A stretch of 64,000 nt of DNA. It comes from Pomacea canaliculata. Its lineage: Eukaryota > Mollusca > Gastropoda > Architaenioglossa > Ampullariidae. This document shows, in pieces, positions 1 to 47,800 of this stretch (positions within the stretch are counted from its first letter, which is position 1; each line of letters starts with the position of its first letter). The notes below the pieces were generated by a model. The model saw only the letters and a program-made list of their open reading frames with translations. It ran no database searches and had not been told where the DNA came from. The translations under genes and the position numbers were made by a program. The stretch is from assembly GCF_003073045.1 (NCBI RefSeq), contig NC_037590.1:11985042-12049041 (forward strand). The letters are read 5' to 3'.

Positions 1-299
1 TAGTCAGTTTTCGTTAAAGATTATATTGTCGATTTGAAGTTTGGACAAAAGCTAGAAATACAAACAGCTGCTTCTAAAAGTAAACTATTAGAAGTGAATG
101 ATAGATCTGACAAAGATGCACACTGGATAACAGATCACTATTGGTTCAATCTGTCCCTTTATAGTGAACTGCCACGATATAGCCTTAGCTGCATAAAAAA
201 CCAATTATCTAAACCCCCCAATTTCACAGTAAGTGAAAACCAAAACACACAAAAAAGAAGCGCTCACACATGGAGGTAACATAAAGTAAGCAAGAATTC

Positions 300-475
300 C
301 ATAGCCTAATGGCTGTAGGAAATGAACATAGGTGGTTGACTGTGTATAGGACACTGCATGTGGAAAACTGCCCTAACCCTGCCTCTGATAAATCAGGTCG
401 GCAAGTCGACAGCTGCTGATGGGCAAAGAATCTTTAGCCAAAATCATGCTAACCACTAAGCTTTCCTACATGCTT
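300..475 (-). repeat. Old SINE-like repeat, copy 1
   Basis: Read on the minus strand it begins with a tRNA-like head (AGCTTAGTGGTTAGCAT resembles a pol III A box). It ends in a stretch (GGCTATGGAATTC) shared, with changes, by a sequence near 23095-23290, along with a shared middle around GATTT-TCAG and GGGTTRGGSC. Both copies are heavily diverged and no target duplications were found. Confidence 0.4.
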
Positions 476-809
476 TTTTGTTTAAACTTTTTTGTGTGAA
501 TGACTAATCCAAATCTTTCACAGGTTAATTTCACAAGGAATAGCAACCATCTCATTACAATAACATCTCTCAGGATCTTCAAGTGAAATTATTAGTCAAT
601 GCCATACAAACATAAATATTAAAAATATCAGACCCAATGAGATTTACATGAAATGACTCTTATATAAGCAGTACCAATTAAAAACAAGTTGTAAAAATCT
701 AATAAAACATATCAGCTTTTAATATTTAATAATGACAGAAGTTATGGAGGTCAGAAAGTAGCCAAGCCTGCAGGCAAGAAAAAGCAGTGCAGTGTTTGTC
801 TGGGAGTAC

Positions 810-964
810 CTGCCACAAATGCAAGGTGCAGATCAGTGACTGGGCCAGGAGAAAAACCAAGAATGAGAAGACTGGACTGTAGGATGTGGTAGATGTAGAA
901 ATAGACAAAATTTGAGATCCACTGTGTAAAAGCCAAGGACTGCCACCCACGGTAGATTCCTGAG
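810..964 (-). other. SLC25A17: SLC25A17 exon 4B (diverged alternative copy)
   Basis: A 155-bp exon encoding SGIYRGWQSLAF, WISNFVYFYIYH and ending TDLHLAFVAG. By eye it is about 40-45% identical to exon 4A. The strongest conservation is in SNFVYFY and the closing TDL-x-LAF segment. The acceptor used is ACAAAG just right of 964 and the donor is GTACTC. The reading frame is open across the exon, and both boundary phases equal those of 4A. It could instead be a decaying duplicate, but the open frame and intact splice sites argue against that. Confidence 0.75.
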
Positions 965-3900
965 CTTTGTATCAAATAAAGAAAATGCCAATGATTTCTT
1001 TTTCTTCTTTTCCACTTTCTGCTACTAAGATATTATGCTGAAATTTTTTTAAGGCAAAAATCCCACGATGTGAACATAAAACTAATCCTTGAACCCTTTA
1101 TATAGGGTTAAAGGGATATGAAGAGTACAACACCTATAACTCATTCAGTACAGGTGTATTGACGCAACTAAGCTGTGGCTATTAAGATTTTTGCATTTGT
1201 GAGCGTAAACTATATATGATTAGATAAAAGATCAGATGCTACATTTTTCGTCATGGAAACAACTACAAATTAGTTATACTCAGTGATGTGCCAAAATCTG
1301 TTTCCCCTCACTTTTACCGGGCATTTATGACCTTCAACTGCTACTCCACTAGCAATCACTCATTTCCTGGCCATATCAATAATACTTAAGGAAATTTTGC
1401 AATGCCAAGTGACCTGTCACCTTTGGCATATGAATGACCAGTCTCCATATATTACTACATGTCCAAACTTCAATGGCAGAGAAACTATGCAGAATAAGCA
1501 AACCAGAAAAATTACAAAAAACCAAGACAAATATTTTTATATTTTTGTTTATATCAAGACAAGCAAAAATCAGCATGTAATAGTGAAGTCATTTAAGGAA
1601 ACATTTGAACACCTCTAGCAAACACAAATTATCACTACACTGTTATGCTAAGGAGAAAATGCCTGTAAGGCAGCGGTTCTCAACCTGTGGGGCGCGACCC
1701 CCTGGGGGGTCGCGACGTGCCTACAAGGGGGTCGCGAAGGTGGTCATTTTTTTAAAAAGTTTCTTATACTGGTATTAGTGAAATTAGTTTACATTGTGTA
1801 ACCGAGTGGTGCGGGGGCTCAAACTCCAAATCTCTTCTCCCTATTCAAGTACACTGTCTCGGCATGCAGTGACTTCTCACTTCCAAAACTCAAAACACAA
1901 TCCCCCTCTCAACAATTAAGCCTCCAATCTCCCTCCTCTTTGCCCTCTCTCTCCCCCAATCTCTCATCGCTGACTCCCCTCTCCCTCTCCAGTCACACCT
2001 CTCTTTTTTTTTTAAACATCTAAAAGGCAGGCATTCAGGAAACGTCCATCATTCACACCCTTTCATTCGCACGTGCTCAGTCCTAGTACTCTATAGGTCC
2101 CTGACAGAAGGCCATGACCAGACAAGGGAAGGACACCACCATATTACAAACAACTGACAAGATGAATGCTTTCGTCCGAAAAATTTCGTTTTGGACGCAA
2201 AAGATACGCCAAGAAAATATTTTTGATATGTTTCCGTGCTTGTGTAAGTGCAAGGCTGACAACTTGAATCTTGATCAGGTGAAGAATGTAATTATTGCCC
2301 ATCTAAACGGACTGCAAGAAAGGTTTCAGCATTATTTCGCTGAAATTGATGTGACTAAATACGATTGGATTCCTAATCCATTTCTGGCGGATCCTAGCAC
2401 AAGCGGGTTGTCCACAGAAGAAGAGCAGCTCATCGACCTTTCGAGTGACCAATCCCTGAAAATGGTCTTCCAAACAACACCAGTGCCAAAATTATGGATT
2501 AGCGTCAACGGTGAATATCCTCTCCTTTCTGAGAAAGCAATGAAAGTTTTTCTAACATTTTCAACTTCATACATGTGTGAGCAAGGATTTTCAGCATTGG
2601 CAGCACTGAAGTCGAAATACAGAAATCGTGTGGACGCAGAGGCTGAGCTGCGAATAGCAGTGGGTACGAACATCGCACCCAGGTTCGCTTCTCTAGGCAA
2701 CAGCAAACAGGCTCAACCTTCTCATTAATCAAAGTGAGTGTCTAATAAAACTAATAAAATAATATTTATTAGCACCACAGAATTTGCTTAAGTAAAATTT
2801 CATTAACAGTTATACTTCTTGCAGATACGAACTTTGTTCTTCCGTTGTTGATTTCCTCGACGCGGCGTTCGAGGTTAGCTAAGGCCCCCCCCCGCTCTTC
2901 CACCGACCTAGCTGGCTAAGGGGGTCGCGGACGTACCGGTGTTCGTCAGGGGGGTCGTCACATGTAAAAGGTTGAGAACCGCTGCTGTAAGGTTTCACAC
3001 AAATAGAAACAAATTGTGCTGCTTAAGTGTCTTTCAAAAATATTGTATGCATGCACACATCAAAAGCAATAAAAATAACAAATTAGAAGAAGTGAAAAAA
3101 AAAGAAATAAAGCCATCAGCCAAAATACTGGGCGCCATCAGCTACCTGATATAAATGCAAGAGAAAGGTCTGTAAGAGCAGATGACTTTTTGCCCTGGAT
3201 AAATTTGGTCTTGAGACTGTTGTATGTGTAAAAGTACACAAAGTTCGAACAGCACAATGCAGTCACCACTGGAAACCACCCAAGATAGAGTCCCATTCTG
3301 AAATTTACATCAAATATTTTTTGCATAGCTAAGCATCTAGAAAATGATCAGTTTTGTTGACAATAAATGATATGCTGCTTTGACCAATCCAAATATCTTT
3401 AGCATTAGCCACAAATCAACTGGTCTGTACCTCTAGAAGTACAGTCAGCCCTTGATATTGGTAGTAGTTAGGTGTGCAGGACCCCTGCAAAGTGAAAATC
3501 CATGAATATCTCTAGGGTCCCTATCCCCAAAACCTTAACTTTTAATAATGTGGACCATATTTAACCCATAAAAACATAAAAGTAAAACAATATACTGCAA
3601 CAGTATGTTTTATAAATTCAAAATAATTTTTGAGAATCTCCATTGTGCAGCCTGCAGTTCTTTCAGGCACTGAAAATTTTACAAAATTTAACTTTTTATA
3701 TTAAGTTTATGCAAACTGTTATGATAGTAAAAAAATACAACAAATTAATAATACATGTATTTTATGCATGCTTAAAATTTACAATGTGTGCATGCTTGCT
3801 AAAGTAATTTATGGTGTAAGAGAAAAAGATATTATTTCTGAGATGTTTTGAAAGAAGAAAAAGAGGGTTTCTTGTGTACATGGAGTGGCAGTTTGTTACA

Positions 3901-6900
3901 GGTGAGTGGACCAGAAAAAAATAAAAATCGCAGTTTGATGATATTAGCATGACTTGGCAGACTTGGAGACAAAGTGATGCACAGACTGTTGTTGAAAATG
4001 GCTCTCAGCTTCTTGGCAGTCAGAAATAAGAATGGTAGTTGAAGAGATAGGAAGCAAGAACTGAGAAAGCTTTTGGCGTGTGCCAATAAGAAAGGCTTCA
4101 GTCTTATCATCATTAAGAAGTTTATTGTCTTTTATTCAGTTCTTGATGTCATTGTAGCAGGTGAATGTTCAAGTCAAAAGCATCTGTATGTTGGCAGGTG
4201 TGTCACTGTCTTGGAGTTGAGGGTCATTCATGCACAGGAGGTTTGATGTGATGCAAAGTGATAACGGCAGACAAAAGAGAGATGTACTGGGCCAAGAACA
4301 GACCTCTAAGTCAGTGGTTCTCAAAGTGTGGTCTGCGGACCACTAGTGGTCCGCCGGCATAAGTCAGGTGGTCCACGGCTGACATCAAAGTGATGTTTAA
4401 AGTAATGTATTCCTCGCATTAACATTTTAATTACAAATAACGAGGTATAACTAGTTTTATGTCAACTTATTACTATATTACTTTTATAAAAGGACATTTA
4501 GTTTTGAATTGTAATGAAACAAATGCTGCAATTTAAATTTGAAATACATAGTACAGAGTGAGTTTTAGGCCTTGGTGGTCCGCCATAATTTTTTACTTAG
4601 GCCTTGGTGGTCCGCCGTCCGAAAAACTTTGAGAACCACTGCTCTAAGTAACACTACAGGTCAGGTCAGACTGATGAGAACACTCTGCAATCTACTGGAA
4701 AGATATAAAAGAACCAATAGAAAAAGCCCTGTCAGTGATGCCAAACAAATGATTAAGTCTGATGAAAAGGATGGTATGGTCAATGGTGTCAAAAGCAGCT
4801 GCAACATCCAGGAAAGTGAGTAGGGAGACTTCCTAATTCAGTTAAATGAAAATCTTAAGAAGAGAAAGGCTGAAATGGATTGAGTAGGTGGTTAGCAAAG
4901 AGATGAGTTCAGACAAGACAGACAGACAAACTAAAAGCTGGACAATAATTCTGAGTGCATCGGGGAAAGATTTTTTTTTCAACAGAAGGTGAATGAAGGC
5001 AGAAGATGTGGTAGATGGTGAGAAAAGAAATGTTATGTCTGTGATGAAGGAAGGATGTAATGGAAGATAATCAGAGTAGAGAGAAGCAGAAAGAGAGACA
5101 AGTTCACAGATCCTATTGGACATGGAGCAGATGGTGTTGAGGATTTCATCCTCAGTCATGGAGTGGAAGGAGAAAAGTGGAGTACTAAATAAAATCATTG
5201 GACAAGGGAAAGATATACCTACATCTAATATCTCACAGAAAGTTTTGATTTTTGAGAAAAAGAAATTAGAAGGGAGGAAAAAGGTAACTCTTTCCAATTA
5301 CAGTCGGCTGAAAGTGGAAAGATTTTGGTGGTGTGAAGGTCCTTTAAGATAAACTACTGTTCTTAAGAAGTGTATTCAAGAGCTTTCTCCCTAAAAATAT
5401 TTGCTTTTCACTAAAATTTCTCTGTGTGCTTTTTGGAGCGCCAACAATGCTCAGCTTGAAAGCGTGCACACTTGACCTAAGTAATTTCCAGAGTGTGCCC
5501 AGGGATTGTGGATGGTCTAGAAGAAAATAGATTACTGCAAAAGCATAGGTATAAAGTTACTGATGGAGTGTAGAATAGAAGTGTGCAATGCAATCCAAAG
5601 AGGGTGCAGAGAGGAGGCATGATTCCTCAGAAACAAGTCATGAGAGTCAGTACTTGTGATGCTACATATGATGATTCGTCAATAGGTACAAGTGGGGATG
5701 AGATCAAGTGTGCAGAAGACAACAGAGTGGTCAGAAGGAAGAGAAGTCAGTGGCATGAAGATAATCATTGAAGGAAGACCTGCAAATAATCAAAGCACAA
5801 AAGTAAAGCCAGCAAATTCTGAGCACTGACTACATTATTAGTGACAGAAAATAAAGCAAATGCAAATTATTTAACTTCACACTTCTGGCATGCTCAGTTT
5901 ACTTACATTCCCTCCTCTTTGATGATATCTGCACATATCTGGTGTGTGTGCTTTGCTTTTCTGTGATCATCAACTGCATAAAATAGAAAACTGTTATGTT
6001 TTCACTTTTAAAACGTGTACACATCCCATCAAATATTGTAGGTGAATTGTATTTAGTTTTTCCAAAGTTATAGACCTCAACTCTCTGCTTGTCTGGGTAA
6101 ATATCTAGACTTTCTTTTTGACAGTTTAAAGATCAGTACTACACTGCTAGCATATCTTGTGATGCTGGAATTTTTAAAGAAATATGTACTTACTCTGTAG
6201 CCGAGTACGAACTGTGTCTAGAGGATAGAAGACTGTAATTGCTACTACACTGCCCTGAAAGAAAAAGAAGAAAAATCTATTTTTCAGGATCAAAAATCAT
6301 CACAGTCCTTACATTAATAATAAATGATCAGCCCATGACAAATAGTCAGAATTATTTATTTTATGCATTTGTAAAACTATTACAAACTTAACAGCTTTTT
6401 TCTTAATAATTTATGATAATTTGTAATAATTATAATCTATTTCTATTGATTTGAATACTCGATGTAGTATTAATAACTCTACATGACAAAACAAAGATTT
6501 CAGTTTTCACTTTTACTAAATTCAAGTGAGAAAATACTGGAAAACGAAAGTGTAAAGGTCCTTCAATAAAGTTTACACTTTGCATCTGACTAGGAAGGGA
6601 AAATACCTCAATTTCAAGCTGTCACTAGTGACAGCACAAATTTGTATCAAATCAATCAAATCACTTTCAAAACAGTGACTGAAGTCTTAGTAAACGGTGA
6701 TTTGCTGCCCTGGATCAGTCATACAATAATCAAAGATTGATTTCAATATCAGTGGCGACGTAAAGATGCTCAGCTTTTGCGGGTGCACCATGCTGACAGT
6801 TCATATTCTTGCCTCCTCAGTATCTTTTCTGTGGGCAACCCCTTGACCCACCGCTTTCAACGCCACTGTGTATCACTGTATAAGTATCCCACAGATTAGA

Positions 6901-7054
6901 CTGCCTAATTATTTCTTCGAACTGTTTAGCAGCCTTCACGGCATCAGATGTGCCTGACTCCGCCACTAAAAAACAAATAAGCAGACAGTAGACCTACCAC
7001 AGCACCAGATACGGCGTGGACGAGATTGGAGTAAGAAAACACCGAATGCGTCAT
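810..7054 (-). CDS. SLC25A17: Peroxisomal solute carrier PMP34 (SLC25A17), 5' part
   Basis: A mitochondrial-carrier-family protein. The vertebrate orthologue moves CoA, FAD, NAD and related cofactors across the peroxisomal membrane. Visible coding exons on the minus strand: 7054-6998 (start, FSYSNLVHAVSGAV), 6254-6194 (GSVVAITVFYPLDTVRTRLQ, the carrier signature PxDxxR with first transmembrane helix), 5973-5907 (basic, ending ADIIKEEG), then either 3297-3146 or 964-810 (helix containing SNFVYFY). All joins are GT-AG and the phases agree (0, 1, 2, then 1 at the end of either fourth exon). Order and residues match human PMP34 as I remember it. The rest of the protein, from the loop after the third helix onward, lies beyond the left edge. 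The start is the first ATG of an open exon and gives the N-terminus expected for PMP34. The gene is head-to-head with MOSMO. The family call is firm; the use of both fourth exons is inferred. Confidence 0.9.
1139..1213 (+). repeat. Interspersed repeat, copy 1 (pair with 40559-40633)
   Basis: About 75 bp that aligns without large gaps to 40559-40633: both contain TCATTCA, GGTGT, TTGA-GCAA-TAAGCT and GCAAACTATA or GTAAACTATA. The opening TAGCTCATTCA-like portion, best kept in the 40.5-kb copy, resembles a tRNA A box, so this may be a SINE head. It lies in the intron or 3' flank between SLC25A17 exons 4A and 4B. Confidence 0.5.
1671..2984 (+). mobile_element. hAT transposon with partial transposase, perfect 8-bp TSD
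   Basis: The element is bounded by terminal inverted repeats CAGCGGTTCTCAACC and GGTTGAGAACCGCTG and flanked by the perfect 8-bp duplication CTGTAAGG (1663-1670 and 2985-2992), as expected for hAT. An open frame at 2114-2728 (204 codons) encodes only the C-terminal part of a hAT transposase of the ZBED5/FAM200 type: ERFQHYF and PNPF, then the dimerisation segment with TFSTSYMCEQGFSAL. The N-terminal BED finger and the DDE catalytic core are missing, so it is an internally deleted copy that cannot move itself. It sits between exons 4B and 4A of SLC25A17, on the opposite strand. Confidence 0.92.
3146..3297 (-). other. SLC25A17: SLC25A17 exon 4A (canonical version)
   Basis: A 152-bp exon encoding GLYLGWFPV, then CCSNFVYFYTYNSLK and ending LSLAFISG. 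It closely resembles the corresponding human PMP34 stretch (YRGWFPV, CCSNFVYFYTFNSLK). It has an AG acceptor just right of 3297 and a GTAGCT donor left of 3146. It enters with two codon bases already supplied and leaves one base, exactly as exon 4B does. Confidence 0.88.
3442..3575 (+). mobile_element. Decayed Tigger/pogo-type MITE fragment
   Basis: It begins TA then CAGTCAGCCCTTGATATT, the usual style of Tigger-family termini, followed by a GACCCCTGCAAAGTGAAAATCC-like subterminal part. The right end could not be placed, so its end coordinate is approximate. It has no coding capacity. Confidence 0.5.
4312..4641 (+). mobile_element. hAT-type MITE, 330 bp, perfect 8-bp TSD
   Basis: Terminal inverted repeats CAGTGGTTCTCAAAG and CTTTGAGAACCACTG are flanked by the perfect duplication CTCTAAGT (4304-4311 and 4642-4649). 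Subterminal GGTGGTCCGCC motifs recur at both ends. It has no transposase and is a non-autonomous hAT derivative in the SLC25A17 intron between exons 3 and 4A. Confidence 0.9.
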
Positions 7055-8746
7055 ACTGTAGTCTTGATCGGTTCCAGTCAGAACAGCAGAGATGTTATTC
7101 AAAACGCTGCTCGCGCTCAGCATTACAGCAAGCCGTCAAAAAAAGCGCCGAAGCGAATATTAATCAAAAGCAAGAAGACACGTTTTCTAACCTGTATGGT
7201 ATAAACATACAAGAAAAAGTGATCGGTAAGCTTTGAGACTTTCAGACATTTAAGGATCTTACTTTTCTCGGATATTAATACCACACAGAGTCTACATTCC
7301 TGCTAAAATATTTTCGGGAATTAACCGGATGCAGAATTCTGGAGACCGGAAGTTTGGAGGCAGTGATGGTAAAGAGAGTGCAATACAATATTACTCCTTC
7401 AGCATTTATGAGTGTCCAAGACCTAGTGAATATTATTCCACTGTTTATTATAGAATATATACGTTGAAAACGTTCTTTCTATTGTTATGTAAGTCACAAA
7501 GTTTTTATCTTCATTCTAATCAATTATTATCCTTAGTAGTATATAAGACTGCTGTAGAGCAGACGACCATCATTGCGTTTAGACTGATAATAATATCAAA
7601 GACGGTAGATTATATTTACTGTCTTTGCTAATAGTAAGTTGCTGCCTCTGTTGGTCTGATTTTATCAGTTCTAGCATATGTGTCTTAAAAGACGCATACG
7701 TGTCTTAATTACAGTTTTAAAACCTAAAAGTAAAGATATATCCGATTACTGTGATCAGAAATCTAGGGTGATATTTGTGACAAGGACTTGTATAGGGATA
7801 TTAATTCGTGGTGACAATCATCATTTTGGACTGAAATTGTATTTATTAAAAGTAAGATCGAAGCACAAAATAATTAGTTCTTGGTGATATCATTATATGA
7901 CATATGAATATTAGACATAGACATGTTCATCAATATAACATAATTACTTATTTACTTAGGCCTCATTGTGATACATAACTCATCTATTAGAGACCTCCAT
8001 TTTTGTCTGTCAGCTGCAAGTTTAGCTACATTATTCTCGGTCATTTACTGAAGCTTTAGTTTTCTCTCTCTGTGCTGACCTTTGCAATGTTCATCTTGAT
8101 TGACCACTTTTCCTCTTGCCATCAACTGCCTATAAGTAAAATAAAGAGTTATTTTGGGTAGTGCCACTGGTTTCATGCTGCACACATCCCGCAACTATCT
8201 CCATCTTTTTTATATTATGGTTGCCATGTTTCTACAGCTTGATCCTATAAGGGTTTTATTGTTGTCGGTTATGCTTGGCCAGAATATCTTGAAGATTTTC
8301 CTCAGTCATTTGGTTTGAAAGATCTCTAGTTTCTGTCTGATATGTTCCAACATTCATTTCCTATCTGATGGGTGGACAGGTGGTTGATGGTTTATGGTTG
8401 GTTGCATAGTAGCTAAAGTGCCTGTCACCATGATAGTGGGAATCCGGTGTCATTGGTTGGGATCTCTAACATATCTTTCTTTGAATGTGAAATCTGTTTA
8501 CAGGGCTGATCATCAATGGTTTTTTGATGCAGGTGTATGAAACAGAGACTGAGTGAGCAGTTAATTTGAATGATGATAAATGAATTTCTAGGATGCATTT
8601 GATGACTTCTGATAAGTGTGTGCTTCTGCAGCTCCGTGTGTATAAGTGGCTTGAGTCCATCTTTCTTGGCACTATGTAAATAAACATTTATTGTTGTTAT
8701 TATTAATTGGTAATATATATTTCAGCTTGTCTGTGCAACAGATAAC
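7055..8746. promoter_or_regulatory. Divergent intergenic region between SLC25A17 and MOSMO
   Basis: About 1.7 kb separates the two start codons. It must hold the SLC25A17 promoter and 5' UTR. MOSMO may have an untranslated first exon here, because an acceptor-like TATATTTCAG ends at 8724, just before the MOSMO start exon. The only other recognised content is a degraded LINE tail at about 7955-8380. Confidence 0.5.
7955..8380 (-). mobile_element. Degraded non-LTR retrotransposon 3' end
   Basis: Minus-strand translation, broken by stops, shows the C-terminal end of an RTE-like/CFDP2-like reverse transcriptase ORF: YGTETWNISDR, a FWP-like stretch, then LAADRQKWRSLIDELC, a very common closing segment of such ORFs. 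It is a short 5'-truncated, inactive copy. Confidence 0.65.
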
Positions 8747-10058
8747 ATGGATAAATTGACAGCTTTGTCAGGGATTCTTTTCTTCACTGCTGATATCTTT
8801 GCCATTGGAAGCTTAGCAAATCCTGATTGGATAGTTACCAGTGAAGCAGGTACTTCAAAAGCTAAATTTTAGACTACATAAATTTCCTACAATAAAGCAA
8901 TATTTTCTGTGATTGCTTTAGTAAATGTATCCTGTATAAGCTAGAGGTGAATGCTCTGTTCGGGTGGTTTGTACCATCATTCTATGTAACTTTGGAATTT
9001 CATCAAACATTCTACCTGTAAAATAAAGTATTTATATAGGTTTTGGTTTGAACAGTTTCACAGCAACTTCAGTAGATCATGATGGATAATATACTCACAC
9101 TCCAGCATTTTATTTGCAGGTAATATGAGACTGGGTCTGACACAGCATTGTCAGATAATACATGGTCGGCCTGAAGTATGCACTTGGCCACAGCTACCAG
9201 CAGAATGGACTCTAGCATTTCTGTGCATTGTTGGAGGCATTCTCTGTCTTACCGCCACCTGCATTCTCCTCCTCCTTTCCCACTGGCATCGTCAGGCAGC
9301 AAAATATGTTCGATGGGTTGCCTTTTTTGGAAGTGAGTTTTTTCTACTATAGTTTAGTTTTCATGGTTGTAGTCAAATTTTCTGCAACATTTAGCCATGA
9401 TAATTAAAGTTAATCCGTATGATATGTCAGTACTCTTCTTGTTGGAAATAGCAATGATGGTAGTAGGATTTTATTTCTCTGCAACTAAGCAGTATCAATG
9501 TGATTGATAATGAGAATATGTATGTATGTGTTTTTATACATATATATATCTACTGGGCTTCACCATAAAGATGAAAAAAGACTTGGATGCATATAAAAAA
9601 ATTAACCAGCAGTAGATAAGAGAAAGCTAGATTCTATTTAGAATAACTATTTTTTAAAAGAAAAGTATGGTTAAAAAGTCTTCATGCTTTGTGCTATAGG
9701 AACAAAAAATAAGAACAATTTATGGCCAGATAATCAACCATTAGTAATGGACCTGAATTGTAAAGTTGTTGTCAGTGGTTTGGGTTAAAAATTAAAAATG
9801 GTTTCATCACTGATTGCAAACAAATGCATGTAATAAAAAAAATTACTGCTGTTAATAACTTTTGTTTCAGTGACGCAGTTCTGCCTTGCTGCTGTGGTGT
9901 TTCCGATTGGGTTTCATATTGCAGCCATTGGAGGTCAGCCTTACAAACTGCCACATCACACTCAGGTTGGCTCAGCTTATGTCCTGTTCATCATGGCCAT
10001 TTTCTTCACTGTTATTTCCGAACTTTTCTCAAGTCGTGTGTGTCTGCCAGTCCTGTGA
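8747..10058 (+). CDS. MOSMO: Modulator of Smoothened (MOSMO)
   Basis: A small claudin/PMP22-like four-span membrane protein. In vertebrates it acts at the cell surface and primary cilium with MEGF8 and MGRN1 to lower Smoothened levels and dampen Hedgehog signalling. Exons 8747-8849, 9120-9332 and 9871-10058 splice in frame (phases 1 and 1) to 167 residues, the human length as I remember it. Conserved stretches include MDKLTALSG, ADIFAIGSLANPDWI, the Cys-containing extracellular segment LTQHCQIIHG, the membrane segments around FLCIVGGILCLTATC and FCLAAVVFPIGFHIA, GGQPYKLP, and the C-terminus FSSRVCLPVL. The Met at the last junction is split A|TG across the splice. A possible poly(A) signal AATAAA lies at 10633-10638. 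The gene looks intact. Confidence 0.93.
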
Positions 10059-27352: not shown

Positions 27353-28591
27353 TCAAGTAAGAGCCCTCCTCATTTCCATCTCCCACAATCTCTCCTTTCT
27401 CTCTTTCCTTCTCTGTTCTTTTCTAGAAAGTGTTCTCACATTTGGTTTCCTCTGACTGCTTTTCTGAATACTGTGAACACTATGGACAGCTGATGTATCA
27501 TACGGTTGAAAATGAGTTATCTTACTTTCGCCATTTTTGTTTCCAAGACCTTTTCTATCCCTCTTTAGGCATGTTTTCACAGGATATTTCTGACCCTGTC
27601 CATAAGGTCCTAATCCTCTGTTATCCTCCCAACCACTCTTCAACAACATACGATAGCCTACATTTGATGGAGGAATCAAAAATGCATGGTCTCTTGGTTT
27701 GAGACCTACATTAAAAAGATGTACAGTGGATGTCAAATGAGTCTTTTTATTATCACATTGTATCTGGCACACATCACAGTAAAATTTTACATTTGGCAAG
27801 ACTGGTGTGTTGATATGGGGCTGGAGTGTGCCATCTCTTCTTTCCCTTTGAATCTTCTCGATGAAATGTACTACAGAACTATGACCCCGGCTTTGTGCCA
27901 ACTGCACTGCTGTTTGCCCAGCATTGTTGGTCTGAGATAAATCAGCTCCTGAGTCAACAAGACATTTCAGCACTTCTGAGTGGCCTTCAAATGCAGCACA
28001 CATTGCTGCTGTCCACCCAAACATGTCTGAGACATTTATATTAATCCCGAGGCTAATCAGATTCTGAATCGGCTCCACCTCACCATTCTGAGAACACCAA
28101 AGAAACTTTGCCTCTTTCTGAGTAAGAAGTTGTAGACTGTGATGTTTCTGACAATTTGCAGTCACTTTCATCCAAGGTCTCGGTGACATACTTGTCTGCA
28201 ATTTGGCTTTGGCATCTTTAGATGAAGTCTTGCCTACTTCTATAATTCCAGTAGCACATAATTTCATAGCTTTATTATTGTCACAATCATTTTTGACATA
28301 TTTTGATCGTTCATTTTTAGATTTTTTAAGTCTTTTATCCTCACATTCTTGCTGCCATTGGTTCCCCTGCTGTTCAGTTTCACATGCTTTTGCTGTTTTT
28401 AAAGACACTGAGGCAGGTAATGATAGGAGTTCTTCATAGAAGGACCTCGCCTCATCCCCACCAAGTGAAATCTGTTTCACAAGCGCTGGATTCTGCCTCA
28501 GTGATCTTTCTCTGTGACCATTTGGGTTATCTTCAGGTTTTACAAATTCTATTAAATGTGCATGCTCTCTGTTTGTTGCAGAAAAGGCCAT
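27353..28591 (-). CDS. GPANK1: G-patch and ankyrin-repeat protein GPANK1
   Basis: 412 residues in a single uninterrupted exon, slightly longer than human GPANK1 (356). Domain order matches: an N-terminal ARSFYEELL segment, a low-complexity Lys-rich spacer, two ankyrin repeats (about residues 180-245, with DMFGWTAAMCAAFEGH and NNAGQTAVQLAQSRGH), a C2H2-like finger (FYCDVCQIQCDNKKTHLTST), a G-patch (about residues 315-360, GYRMLLKSGWEDNRGLGPYG and KRDRKGLG) and the basic tail VRTLSRKEQRRKERKERLWE. The G-patch suggests interaction with an RNA helicase; the exact role is not known. A TTTCAG acceptor just upstream of the start indicates an untranslated first exon. A short ATG ACA TGA uORF precedes the start, and MAFSATN is the first ATG of the long frame. 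Confidence 0.94.
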   Translation of the reverse strand: MAFSATNREHAHLIEFVKPEDNPNGHRERSLRQNPALVKQISLGGDEARSFYEELLSLPASVSLKTAKACETEQQGNQWQQECEDKRLKKSKNERSKYVKNDCDNNKAMKLCATGIIEVGKTSSKDAKAKLQTSMSPRPWMKVTANCQKHHSLQLLTQKEAKFLWCSQNGEVEPIQNLISLGININVSDMFGWTAAMCAAFEGHSEVLKCLVDSGADLSQTNNAGQTAVQLAQSRGHSSVVHFIEKIQRERRDGTLQPHINTPVLPNVKFYCDVCQIQCDNKKTHLTSTVHLFNVGLKPRDHAFLIPPSNVGYRMLLKSGWEDNRGLGPYGQGQKYPVKTCLKRDRKGLGNKNGESKITHFQPYDTSAVHSVHSIQKSSQRKPNVRTLSRKEQRRKERKERLWEMEMRRALT

Positions 28592-41895: not shown

Positions 41896-44800
41896 TTATG
41901 ATGCTGCAGTTGCTTTTGATCCCACCTTTAAACTTTCATCATCGTTAGATTTAGACTTCCACTGCTTCCTGCTTATCCACATCAAGAGCAGTAATGCTGG
42001 CAAATGTATTAGGCTGAAGCGAAACAACTTTCTGGAACTTTTACTGTCTCCATGTCGATAAAACTGCCAGCCCAGATAGGTCAGGTACAGATTAAGAGGT
42101 AGGGAGTCCACTGCAAAGGTCCAGGTGGTAAGGTCTAGTAAAGGGGCAACCAGGCAAATTCCTGTGGAGACCACGCTGTAGCGCAGAGCCACTCGCTTAC
42201 ACAGTCCAGGATTGACAACAGACATCATGCGATAGCCAGCCCGCGAGTATTCTGGACGTAAGTTCCAGCTTAAAGCATTGAAGTGAGGGAACTGCCATGC
42301 ATACAGTATACCTGCTAAGATCCATGCTCCTGCAAGTATTTCAGAAAAATCAAACATAAAAAAGGTATTTCTCAGCTCATATAATGAAAATTACAAATTT
42401 GTCAAATCTGAAAACTGCTAAATAAGACATAGGTTTGGTGACTTTGCAGGCACCTAAAAAGATTCCACCGTTAAAATTAAATAAAAGCATTTTTCACAGC
42501 AACATAAATTTATATAAAGTGAATCATAAAAATAAAGTAAATTTTAAGGGACAAGCAAAGAAAATTCATTACGGGACAGACATGAACGCAACCCATCTGC
42601 CTGTATTGTGGCAACTCAGAGGACAGTGCCAAGTAGCCAGATAGCGTACATGTTGCGGAAGTGTTAAAGCCCTCTGTTAAATAACCGCTTGACAAAAAAT
42701 AGCAGACTAATGAAAAGTTGATAATTTTGTATGACTCATGAATGATGCTATAAATATCCATAGGGCCCTTGTCAGAAAAAACAAGTCCCCTACCCCAAAT
42801 ATGAACCTCTTGAAATGTTGAAGCGAGAGGAAAATTGCTCCTATGTTCCAACAACAATGAAAAATAATCACACAATATAGTACATACCAGTTTCAAGTCC
42901 ACCTGTGCCAGCAGCCCAGCCCATCATAGGTGGGATGGCCCCCACCACAGATCCCACCCATGTGTTCACAATGCTGATGCGCTTAAGAGGAGTGTAAACC
43001 AGAGTGTAAAGAACAAGATTAAAGCCACCAAGTAGAGCTGTCACTCCATTAACTCCAACAGCCAAGATGGACAGACCAGTTGCCCCACATATCACAGCAA
43101 ATGTAACTGCATGAAGAGGACTGTTCACAGAACAAAAAATACTGTTAGTACCAAAGAAAAAATTCTCTTTGTCTATAATTCAGTTCACCAGAACATCTTT
43201 TTTCTGCAGAAAAATTTAACCATTCATCTTCTGGGAGTCTATGTCTATATTTTCCTTTAAATCACCCTGACAACATAAAGGAACACAGGAATATTCCAAG
43301 GCTCAAAAGACTAGTGCCTACTCTCCAGTTTAGACTTGATGAAAACTTATTAACCTTATGTGTGTGTGTGTACTCTGACATATATGGACTCTTTCTATTA
43401 ATTTAAGCTTTAATATGTATTAAATCATCTCCTGTAGAATGAATAATCAGTGTTTAAACAAAAGGACACATCCCAAAATCCATTATAAAGTGCATGAACA
43501 AATAACTAAGCAAAGAAAGCCATGTGGACAGAGGTCAGCCACTCATTATTATATTGATTTACACTACAAAAAGCAAAAATGAGAACCTAAAGAAAAGTTG
43601 TATCTGAATTTTTATGTACATTTCTTTTAAAAACATACATTATTTTGTTTAATCTGTTTGCATTTAGCACATAATTTCTTTTCAATTAATGCCCCATGAC
43701 CAAACTTCATGACTATAGCTCTTTGTTATCACTATAACTTGGCTTTCTGAAGGATAAGCTCTTCAGCTCTTGTTGCAGTCTGCATAGTACAGAATCATTC
43801 ATAAGAGCCTTTGAAATATGTCTGAACAAACAAAGATGATTTGAAGAAAAAGACTGATTTTTAACAGTCTTACCTGATTTGTCCTCGAACAAGAACCCTG
43901 TTCTTCGTGCGATTCATTTGTGAGTCATATGGGACTTCAAAGAACTGTAACAATTTCAAGACAAACTTTTAACCAGATGTATTAAACACCTTAATTTCTT
44001 AAATGATGTGCCAGTTTAAAGAATATAATCATAGTTAAGCTTTGTAAGCTCTAAAATTTGACTCACTTGGTTGATAGAGTTTGCACAGCAAGATGTCAGT
44101 CCAGTCCCAATGGTACAGAGAACAAAGGTCGTCGGTTCAAATGCAGCTGGAGCCATTGCATATCCTGCCATAGTTGTTATGACAACAAGACCTGCCACAA
44201 ATGCTAGAGCTCAGTTGTGAAGCACAATCTGTAAAGACCTTTCAATGGTTATTTCAAGTTTATTTAAAAACTTCTAAAAATAGCAAGTTGTTTTTCTTGG
44301 CAGGCCTGTATCTTCACGTTAGATATGACACTTCTTCAACATAATTTAGTTCTAATTAATAGGAAACTGTTAATGTAATTATTTTTTATGTCTAATGGAC
44401 TTTTTAACAAATCTAATGTTTTTCTTGCACACAATGTCCCTCACGAACAACTAGAACTGCCGTGTTATGAAAAAATGTGCATCAATGTTGACTTTATTTT
44501 GATTAGTCTGCTTCCATTTACAATGTTCTGTCTCTTCAAACAGATTGTTCATGTGCCAAGTGAATTATCATGGTCTTTTTTTATTATTACACTTATGGGT
44601 GGGAGATGAATTGGTATTTTACACTGAGCCAGCAACCAAGGCTATATCACGGCAAAGCAGCAAACCCTGTAAACAGATGCCACATGCAGAGAAGGAATAG
44701 CGTGCCCAACATGAGATCTGAACCTAGGACAGCCAATCCTCACTGTATTGGTGACAGGCACTAACAGTTGCACCATTGGACCACCTACAGCTACATTTAA

Positions 44801-47800
44801 TATGAATCATGTTATTACTAATGGTTTTTGTGTGATCATATGACAAAAAAATGACCAAACTCTAGCATGGGGGATGCTTGTATCGTGAGGCGCAACTGTA
44901 CATCTACTCCATCAAATCAATCCTTATGCTCATAAACTCATATCTGAACATGTATTCTTATTACACTAATTCCACATCAAAACAGAAAAACAAGATTAGG
45001 AGCTCATGTGTAAACTTAATAAAACTTACTAGTAAGTCGGATTTTGGATAGCCTCAGGTAGTAGTCTGGAAGTTTCCGAAATTCTAGTACCTGCTCCTTC
45101 CACTGATGCTCTTCAATGGAGTCAATCCTCTTGGCAGGATTGGTCATGTCTGTCTGTACTACTCCTGAAGTCACACGCAGAGCAGTTGTTGGGACAATCG
45201 TGTTGTCTTGGAGCACTGTATGAATTACCTATACCATGTGCATGCAAAGGATCTTGAGTTCATTTACTCCATATCTTATAAAGTTAATATCCTAGAATAC
45301 CTTTAAAATTAACAATAAACACAATTTCATTTGTGTACCAAATAAGGACAGTAATACCCATATGTATTTTTTGTTATCTGGGAGGAGTGTAGATGATTGT
45401 TAAAATGACAAATGACCTGACACTAATTACCTCATTAAACAACTATTTGCACACCCATTCATGTACTCTACATTCATGTACAGGTAGTCCTCGACTTACG
45501 ACGGGGATCCGTTCTTAACGCGACGTCGTAAACCAAATTTCGACGTAAGTCGGATCATACGTTCATACAGTACTGTACCATAATAACAGTATAGTACTGC
45601 AAACACTTAGCCTGTCCAAACACTTATCCTAACACAGTACCCTACATAATTATCAATAAACATAAGTACAATAAAATATTGTAGTACAGTATGTTTAATA
45701 ATGAAATACTGTACTGTAAGTGCTGTAACAGTAATAAACAGTGTTAGGTTAGGCAGACGTTACCAACACAAGCCTGTCTCATCCACGTTGAACACTTGTT
45801 GAGCACAGTAACCACCCTCCTCAATTATCTTAGCCAATGCTTTAGGAAACTCAGTTGCTGCTTTCTCATCAGCACTAGCAGCTTCACCTTGCACTTTAAT
45901 GTTATGGAAATTGGCACGATCCTTAAACCTCATAAACCAACCCCCACTCGCCACTAATTCTTCACTTTCACTTCCTTCCCCCTTTTCTCTTTTCAACGCC
46001 TCAAACAGTCTCCTAGCCTTCTCCTGAATAACCATAAAACTCACAGGGATACGGCGTTGACTTTGGTCTTCCAACCACAGCGCCAATAATCTTTCCATCT
46101 CAATAATCAGTCCACTACGTTGCTTTGTTATCACTGTCAAGCGTGTGCGGACGTTTTGCCGACGGACGTTTCGCCGCCGGACGTTTCGGAGCCGGACGTT
46201 TTGTCGACTGGACGTTTCGCCGCTGGACGTTTCGGAGTCGGACGTTTTGCCGACCGGCGTTTCGCCGCCGGACGTTTCGCCGCATTATGTCAGAGAGAGA
46301 GCGAGAGCTTACTTACTTCTCAAAGAATGAAAGTAACTACTAGATTACACAATAATTCTTTATTTCAAACAAATTTTACACACAGACTTCACAGACAGTT
46401 TACTTTGATTGTCACAGATTATGCGCAACAGCTTTGAGAAAAAACATTGATACAATGGCGAGAAATGTGTGAGCGAACGGTTCACATGAGGAGGGATAGT
46501 GAGAGAGAGTTCACTGATACATTGATACAATGGCGAGAGAAATGTGTGAGCTAACGTTCACATGAGGAGGGATAGTGAGAGAGAGTTCACTGATACATTG
46601 ATACAATGGCGAGAGAAATGTGTGAGCTAAGGGGCGTCACACACTTGACTTCGGCTAAAGGTCCCGCGTGAAATGCCGAAATGAAGTGCCCCGCGCCGAA
46701 ACGTCCGGCGGCGAAAGGCCGGTCGGCAAAACGTCCGACTCCGAAACGTCCGGTGGCGAAACGTCCGGTGGGCAAAACGTCCGGCTCCGAAACGTCCGGC
46801 GGCGAAACGTCCGTTGGCGAAAAGTCCGTGTACCACTGTCAATGTAAGTGGGAATGAGTGTCGTAACCACGAAACGACGTAACTCGAGACCGTCGTAACC
46901 CGAGGACTACCTGTACCCACTTTCATGTACCCCATTCATGTACCCACAACTCTTCATGTACTAATGATGCAAGACCTCTCGTTCTGACGGAGGTATACAA
47001 GTTTAGTTATGCTTACTGGCTTGGCTGCCTATATTACAATAAGAGTGCTTAAAAAGATAAGATGAATAGAAATAAGCTTTTATTAAACAGCCACCAGCAT
47101 TTTCAAAAGGTTCCAAATGATTCTGTCTCAGAGAACAAAATACAAAGAACAAATTAGAAAATAGTTCACAGCTAAAAAGGAGTTATATTCAAGCATGAAA
47201 CAAAAGGTCACACAAGCTGTCCAATCAGATTGACTCCTGTGACATCTGGAGCAATTACTTATTTAGAGCTTATGTTTGGGCTTGGGTTTTCCTGATTGAT
47301 GTTAAGATTTCTTGGATAAACTGTGTCACATATCAGCTTGGTGAAGCAGATGATGCGACATCATATGATTTGCAAAACTCTTTCTTCTGTTTCACAACTT
47401 TTGCCACACACACTGGTGGTAAAGGTTGGCTGCCCAGAGTTCATTTCTCGTCTCGGGCACGCTGTTCTTTCTCTGCACGTGGCATTTATTTACAAGGCTG
47501 GCTGCCTTGCAGTAATATAGCCTTAGTTGCTGGCATGGCGTAAAAAACCAATCCCGCCCCTGGTGGTAAGAATATAGTTCCTTTGTTAATACTTAAGTTT
47601 TTCTCCTGTACGGTCTGTATCTGCCATATTTAGATAACTTAAGTCTCATTAGCGTGCTGATAACATACACCCTTACTGTTAATGTTCCAAGTTTTCTAGA
47701 AATTGAAGTAATAATAGTTGCAAGACATGAAAGCTATTCTTTGGTGTAATACAAAGTCAGTTCATGTTTCTCTCTCACACACAAAGTCAAAAGGGGAGAG

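What the first reader, a model, noticed from the sequence alone, without database searches (positions are those of the whole stretch)
810..3297. SLC25A17 carries two alternative exon 4 copies that are forced to be mutually exclusive by phase
Exons 4A (152 bp) and 4B (155 bp) both encode the SNFVYFY helix region of PMP34. Both have intact splice sites and share identical entry and exit phases. Using either keeps the frame, while using both (307 bp) or neither breaks it. The replaced segment spans a transmembrane helix and its loop, so the switch could change cofactor specificity or targeting of the peroxisomal carrier. I know of no such alternative in vertebrate PMP34.
Basis: partly seen in the sequence, partly recalled or inferred. 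Interest (0 to 1): 0.8.

Follow-up and report, generated by a model that had tools for sequence, protein, structure and literature searches.

The report
Two swappable exons in peroxisomal carrier
An animal's (probably a snail's) gene for a peroxisomal cofactor carrier holds two old, well-kept versions of one exon, of which a working message can use only one, so the animal can probably make two carriers that differ in a helix lining the transport channel.

Summary
One PMP34 (SLC25A17-like) gene runs on the minus strand from the window into the neighbouring 10 kb. It has nine coding positions, the fourth in two versions: 4A (3146-3297, 152 nt) and 4B (810-964, 155 nt). Either gives an open 306- or 307-residue carrier. 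Both together stop after 165 residues, neither after 91. Genome-wide searches with 4A and 4B found no other close copy, so a second gene is unlikely. The copies share 23 of 52 residues; pS is 0.77 and pN 0.34; 1 of 4000 neutral simulations kept that much identity. This is an old, protein-constrained pair, most likely mutually exclusive. The swap covers helix 2, with changes at the probable substrate contact point (A to T, L to Q) and loss of a gate lysine. Changed transport is the likeliest effect. Changed targeting is less likely, because the loop called essential for it lies in shared exons. No transcript or second species could be examined. Mutually exclusive exons are known in the same family (SLC25A3), so this is a new member of a known kind.

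The parts
6998..7054 (-). PMP34 coding exon 1 (57 nt, phase 0 exit)
   Evidence: (E 0.004), 17: MTHSVFSYSNLVHAVSGAV, donor GTG|gtaggt
6194..6254 (-). PMP34 exon 2 (61 nt), helix 1 with PLD signature
5907..5973 (-). PMP34 exon 3 (67 nt); leaves two bases (AT) of a split codon
3146..3297 (-). Alternative exon 4A (152 nt): canonical version of helix 2, loop and start of helix 3
   Evidence: closest to the human PMP34 recalled from memory (27/52 identical)
810..964 (-). Alternative exon 4B (155 nt): divergent version of the same segment, one extra codon in the loop
   Evidence: 23/52 identical to 4A
1671..2984 (+). hAT-like transposon in the intron between 4A and 4B; 8-bp target duplication CTGTAAGG at 1663-1670 and 2985-2992; ORF 2114-2728 looks like a hAT transposase C-terminal part
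   Evidence: read from sequence; ORF; family name is recall, no profile search run
1..809 (-). Window part of the intron after 4B; it continues to exon 5 at G000:C1:11984235, where exons 5-9 lie (down to 11982182)

Best explanation
The PMP34 (SLC25A17) gene of this animal carries an old tandem duplication of exon 4 that works as a pair of mutually exclusive exons. SHOWN: one gene, two homologous exons, same phases, and only single inclusion giving a full carrier. INFERRED: the spliceosome joins exon 3 to either 4A or 4B, and transcripts with both or neither are frameshifted and removed by nonsense-mediated decay. INFERRED: the two carriers share everything except helix 2 (end of the linker, contact-point region, cytoplasmic gate residue), its loop and the start of helix 3, so the peroxisome can be given a carrier with changed substrate preference or gating, probably by tissue or condition, with both forms still going to the peroxisome.
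For: One exon set with two exon 4 copies. Genome-wide, 4A and 4B are each other's best match; the only other hits of 4B at E up to 10 are at 0.88 and 0.93, and 4A has none. Isoforms of 306 and 307 aa without a stop, but 165 and 91 aa for both or neither. Both versions of repeat 1 pass Pfam Mito_carr: 74.2 bits with 4A, 66.5 with 4B, cut-off 22.3. pS 0.77 against pN 0.34; 283 of 4000 neutral simulations had no stop and 1 of 4000 reached the observed protein identity. 4B keeps YRG and FVAG, as in the human protein recalled from memory, where 4A has YLG and FISG, so 4B is not a decayed copy of today's 4A. The pair meets the published criteria for predicting mutually exclusive exons (similar length, matching splice sites and frame, homology); in that paper 90 of 16180 fly X-chromosome exons that are not mutually exclusive share these features (passages). 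Against repeat 2 of bovine ADP/ATP carrier 1okc both helices align without a gap, putting T and Q (4A: A and L) opposite G182 and I183, and Q (4A: K) at the lysine of YDTAK. A 2020 review places substrate-binding residues at such positions of the even helices (passages; the offset between its numbering and 1okc is my inference).
Against: No RNA reads, annotation or second species could be examined, so use of 4B is unproven, and a recently lost exon would still look constrained. The 4B acceptor is AAG; both alternative donors lack G at +5, which all 7 other donors have, although their computed pairing with U1 is not weaker. Intron pairing did not stand out clearly from shuffles, no U12-type donor is seen by eye, and the exons are 2181 nt apart, so no device for enforcing exclusivity was found other than the frame. 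4B has lost the gate lysine and the basic loop, which could also mean relaxed function. In the fly paper 29 of 94 exons with these features belonged to alternative promoters or poly(A) sites rather than mutually exclusive clusters, though 4B is internal.
Confidence: 0.72

Rival explanations
1. 4B is an old alternative exon that fell out of use recently: a dead duplicate still intact by chance.
For: No expression evidence; 4B acceptor is AAG while the other eight acceptors are CAG; 4B lost the gate lysine and loop charges.
Against: No stop, frame kept, GT and AG present, conserved stretches (YRG, SNFVYFY, TDLxLAF) kept; 283 of 4000 neutral copies at this divergence lack a stop and 1 of 4000 keeps this identity. 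Loss would have to be recent.
Confidence: 0.15
2. 4B is a regulatory poison exon: included with 4A it breaks the frame and lowers PMP34 level through decay, and its protein never matters.
For: Double inclusion stops after 165 residues.
Against: A poison exon needs no protein constraint, yet pN is far below pS, and the phase match that makes single inclusion productive would be unneeded.
Confidence: 0.06
3. Both isoforms are made but the main effect is on targeting (peroxisome against mitochondrion or ER), not on transport.
For: 4B removes all four lysines of the loop after helix 2. A review describes membrane targeting signals as basic clusters next to membrane segments (passages). Its reference list names Wang et al. 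2001 on Pmp47; I recall, unchecked, that this work found helix 2 and its cytosolic neighbour to be part of the signal.
Against: Another review states that the essential PMP34 loop lies between helices 4 and 5 and works with either TM1-3 or TM4-6 (section read); that loop and TM4-6 are in shared exons.
Confidence: 0.07

Closest known systems
SLC25A3 (mitochondrial phosphate carrier) exons 3A/3B
   Same: Same carrier family; mutually exclusive exons giving isoforms with different kinetics and tissue pattern (passages).
   Different: Different carrier, organelle and substrate. That its exons cover another part of the protein (around the first helix) is recalled, not checked.
coq-2 exons 6a/6e (helminths, annelids, molluscs)
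   Same: Mutually exclusive exons remodel the core of a metabolic enzyme and are proposed to switch its substrate; reported in molluscs too (passages).
   Different: Unrelated protein; supported by exon deletions in C. elegans and by RNA-seq, which are lacking here.
Vertebrate SLC25A17 / PMP34
   Same: Apparently orthologous carrier; exon 4A matches its helix 2 closely (human sequence recalled).
   Different: The passages seen from four PMP34 papers mention no alternative exon in this gene. Zebrafish instead has two SLC25A17 genes.
OGDH exons 4a/4b
   Same: Metabolic-gene exons spliced mutually exclusively (listing and start of abstract only).
   Different: There distant branch points in a length-restricted intron enforce exclusivity; here the intron is 2181 nt and holds a transposon.

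Membership tests
Mutually exclusive exon pair | Neighbouring internal exons of similar length, with matching splice sites and reading frame, and sequence homology (criteria of PMC3228551, passages) | tested here: met
   152 and 155 nt, same phases, GT-AG, 23/52 identical residues
Mutually exclusive exon pair | Transcripts with one or the other exon, none (or only frameshifted ones) with both | not testable with these tools
   No RNA data held. Predicted: both or neither frameshifts
Mutually exclusive exon pair | Enforcing device: competing RNA structures, steric limit or U2/U12 mismatch (not required: in 629 human clusters steric 9%, U2/U12 0.79%) | tested here: inconclusive
   Pairing: 4 of 10, 1 of 10 and 3 of 3 shuffles as strong as observed; 2181-nt intron, so no steric limit; U2-type donors by eye
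Mutually exclusive exon pair | Conservation of both copies in related species | not testable with these tools
   No related animal genome could be searched; one viral scan gave 1 short match (14 residues), one prokaryote scan none
SLC25A17 / PMP34 | Three Mito_carr repeats | tested here: met
   3 stretches in each isoform, 202.6 and 194.5 bits
SLC25A17 / PMP34 | Closest to PMP34 along the whole length | tested here: inconclusive
SLC25A17 / PMP34 | Peroxisomal location and cofactor transport | not testable with these tools
   Needs experiment

The most novel reading that the evidence does not exclude
[quoted passage not shown] It may predate the split of protostomes and deuterostomes, since 4A is closer to (recalled) human PMP34 than to 4B, with 4B later lost in vertebrates.
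Probability: 0.25. Interest if true: 0.75.

Novelty: new member of a known kind. Interest (0 to 1): 0.47.

Why it matters
[quoted passage not shown] A natural pair of carriers differing only around helix 2 would be a ready-made test of which residues set substrate choice, and would show that peroxisomal cofactor supply can be switched by splicing. The switch itself is of a known sort, so the surprise is moderate.

Tried and rejected
Second gene or stray copy: rejected. In the 20 kb searched (L009 plus window 1-10000) there is one set of the other exons, and no further close relative of exon 4 in the genome (only the best candidates are scored there).

4B as an exon for another repeat of the carrier: rejected. 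4B scores 29 and 25 against the gene's own repeats 2 and 3 (62 and 37 of 500 shuffles reach these) but 105 against 4A (0 of 500). 4A itself scores 42 against repeat 2 (0 of 500), as expected of a threefold-repeat protein.

Competing intron RNA structures: best duplexes -58.1, -57.2 and -56.5 kcal/mol for the three intron pairs; 4 of 10, 1 of 10 and 3 of 3 shuffles were as strong (the last stopped at 3 for time). Only 120-nt chunks were paired and the two transposon stretches were masked, so this is a limited test.

Control for tandem exon copies in other carrier genes: translated self-comparison of 20 fetched loci plus the PMP34 gene (20 of the 32 loci wanted). It failed as a control: it did not recover 4A/4B, even with relaxed settings, and ordinary carrier repeats scored up to 44.1 bits. 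No rate is claimed from it.

Weak donors as a sign of regulation: mixed. Both alternative donors lack +5G, but their U1 pairing energy (-7.7, -7.1) lies within that of the other seven (-4.8 to -8.9).

NCBIfam gave no match to isoform A, the only one scanned. Literature: one search listed 1 paper (cattle blood, not read), one search listed 7 (passages seen in 2, the other 5 not read), none; one search listed 15 of 23 papers (passages seen in 1).

Full report
What is there. The window lies in a genome of 440,159,624 bases in 24 contigs. Size and contig C1 (45.4 Mb; the longest of the ten contigs whose length I saw) fit the published golden apple snail, Pomacea canaliculata: 440 Mb, longest scaffold 45.4 Mb, hAT-Charlie expansion (passages). 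That paper gives 27.2 Mb as the shortest chromosome and 440,071,717 bases, whereas contig C14 here has 19.4 Mb, so the species is likely but not proven. On the minus strand, from 7054 leftward and on into the next 10 kb, lies one PMP34 (SLC25A17-like) gene, start codon to stop codon.

Gene structure. Coding exons are 1 (7054-6998), 2 (6254-6194), 3 (5973-5907), 4A (3297-3146), 4B (964-810), and 5 to 9 outside the window at G000:C1:11984235-11982182. Exon 3 leaves two bases of a codon; 4A and 4B each complete it, and each leaves one base that exon 5 completes. With 4A the protein has 306 residues, with 4B 307. With both, translation stops after 165 residues; with neither, after 91; in the reversed order, after 124. 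By the exon lengths the stops lie upstream of several later exon junctions, so decay is expected from general knowledge.

It is one gene. A genome-wide six-frame search with the 4B peptide gave 4 matches at E up to 10: itself, 4A (E 3.0e-5) and two weak ones (E 0.88 and 0.93). A search with 4A gave only 4A and 4B.

It is old and was kept as protein. 4A and 4B agree at 23 of 52 aligned residues and 56% of bases; differences are 22, 15 and 32 of 52 at codon positions 1, 2 and 3. Synonymous differences are saturated (pS 0.77) while pN is 0.34. Among 4000 neutral copies of 4A brought to the same base identity, 283 had no stop and 1 reached the observed residue identity; indels were not modelled. 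4A is closer to the recalled human sequence (27/52) than to 4B (23/52), and 4B matches human at 20/52. So the duplication is either very old or 4B has changed faster; 52 residues cannot decide. 4B keeps YRG and FVAG, shared with the recalled human protein, where 4A has YLG and FISG, so the two have evolved separately.

What the swap changes. Both versions of repeat 1 are recognised as mitochondrial carrier repeats (74.2 and 66.5 bits, cut-off 22.3). [quoted passage not shown] Opposite G182 and I183 of 1okc, which I recall as contact point II, 4A has A and L, and 4B has T and Q. A review lists such positions on even helices as the substrate site (passages); the numbering offset is my inference. 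The S and N opposite Y186 and R187, and the following FVYFY, are the same in both. At the lysine of the YDTAK motif, which I recall as part of the cytoplasmic gate, 4A has K and 4B has Q. The loop after helix 2 has four lysines in 4A and none in 4B. This pattern, helix kept and contact and gate residues replaced, points to altered transport rather than a broken protein, though loss of the gate lysine could also be decay. Targeting is less likely to change: a 2026 review says that the loop between helices 4 and 5 is essential for PMP34 and works with either TM1-3 or TM4-6 (section read), and that loop and TM4-6 are shared. Against this, I recall without checking that helix 2 and its neighbour contribute to targeting of yeast Pmp47.

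How the choice may be made. Intron-intron pairing did not stand out clearly: 4 of 10, 1 of 10 and 3 of 3 shuffles were as strong for the three intron pairs. The exons are 2181 nt apart and the donors look U2-type by eye, so steric limits and minor-spliceosome mismatch find no support. All 7 other donors have G at +5 and neither alternative donor does, and 4B alone has an AAG acceptor, but U1 pairing energies are not weaker. The likely device is trans-acting regulation plus removal of frameshifted products. In a study of 629 human clusters, 377 (60%) hold exons whose joint inclusion would give non-functional transcripts because of length, while steric and U2/U12 cases were 9% and 0.79% (passages).

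Known background. Mutually exclusive exons exist in the same carrier family (SLC25A3, passages) and, in molluscs among others, in coq-2, where they are proposed to switch the enzyme's substrate (passages). The passages that I saw from four PMP34 papers mention no alternative exon in SLC25A17 (in, 12 of 16, 12 of 16 and 12 of 19 places were shown). Searches gave no title or abstract start that reports one, but five of the seven papers were not opened, and most subscription papers and all database annotations are outside the library.

Verdict. The feature is real, and mutually exclusive use is the best reading (0.72 for the whole explanation). The functional step, changed transport, is inference. 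Expression is the missing proof.

Noticed in passing
window 1671-2984: A hAT-like element with matching ends (CAGCGGTTCTCAACC / GGTTGAGAACCGCTG) and a perfect 8-bp target duplication sits in the intron between 4A and 4B; perfect flanks suggest a fairly recent insertion.
   Followed up: partly
window 4312-4641: A short element with hAT-like ends (CAGTGGTTCTCAAAGT / ACTTTGAGAACCACTG) and an 8-bp duplication CTCTAAGT lies in the intron between exons 3 and 4A.
   Followed up: no
window about 8747-8849, + strand: An ATG and open frame (MDKLTALSGILFFTADIFAIGSLANPDWIVTSEAG, read by eye) ending at a GT, on the strand opposite to PMP34 and pointing away from it; possibly a coding exon of a neighbouring membrane protein gene.
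   Followed up: no
window 41896-42357, - strand: ORF that looks like the C-terminal part of COX10 (haem A farnesyltransferase); identification by eye, no search run.
   Followed up: no
window 27353-28591, - strand: 412-residue ORF with ankyrin-like and G-patch-like stretches, resembling GPANK1 by eye.
   Followed up: no
window 45760-46140, - strand: ORF resembling a Tigger/pogo-type transposase DNA-binding region by eye.
   Followed up: no
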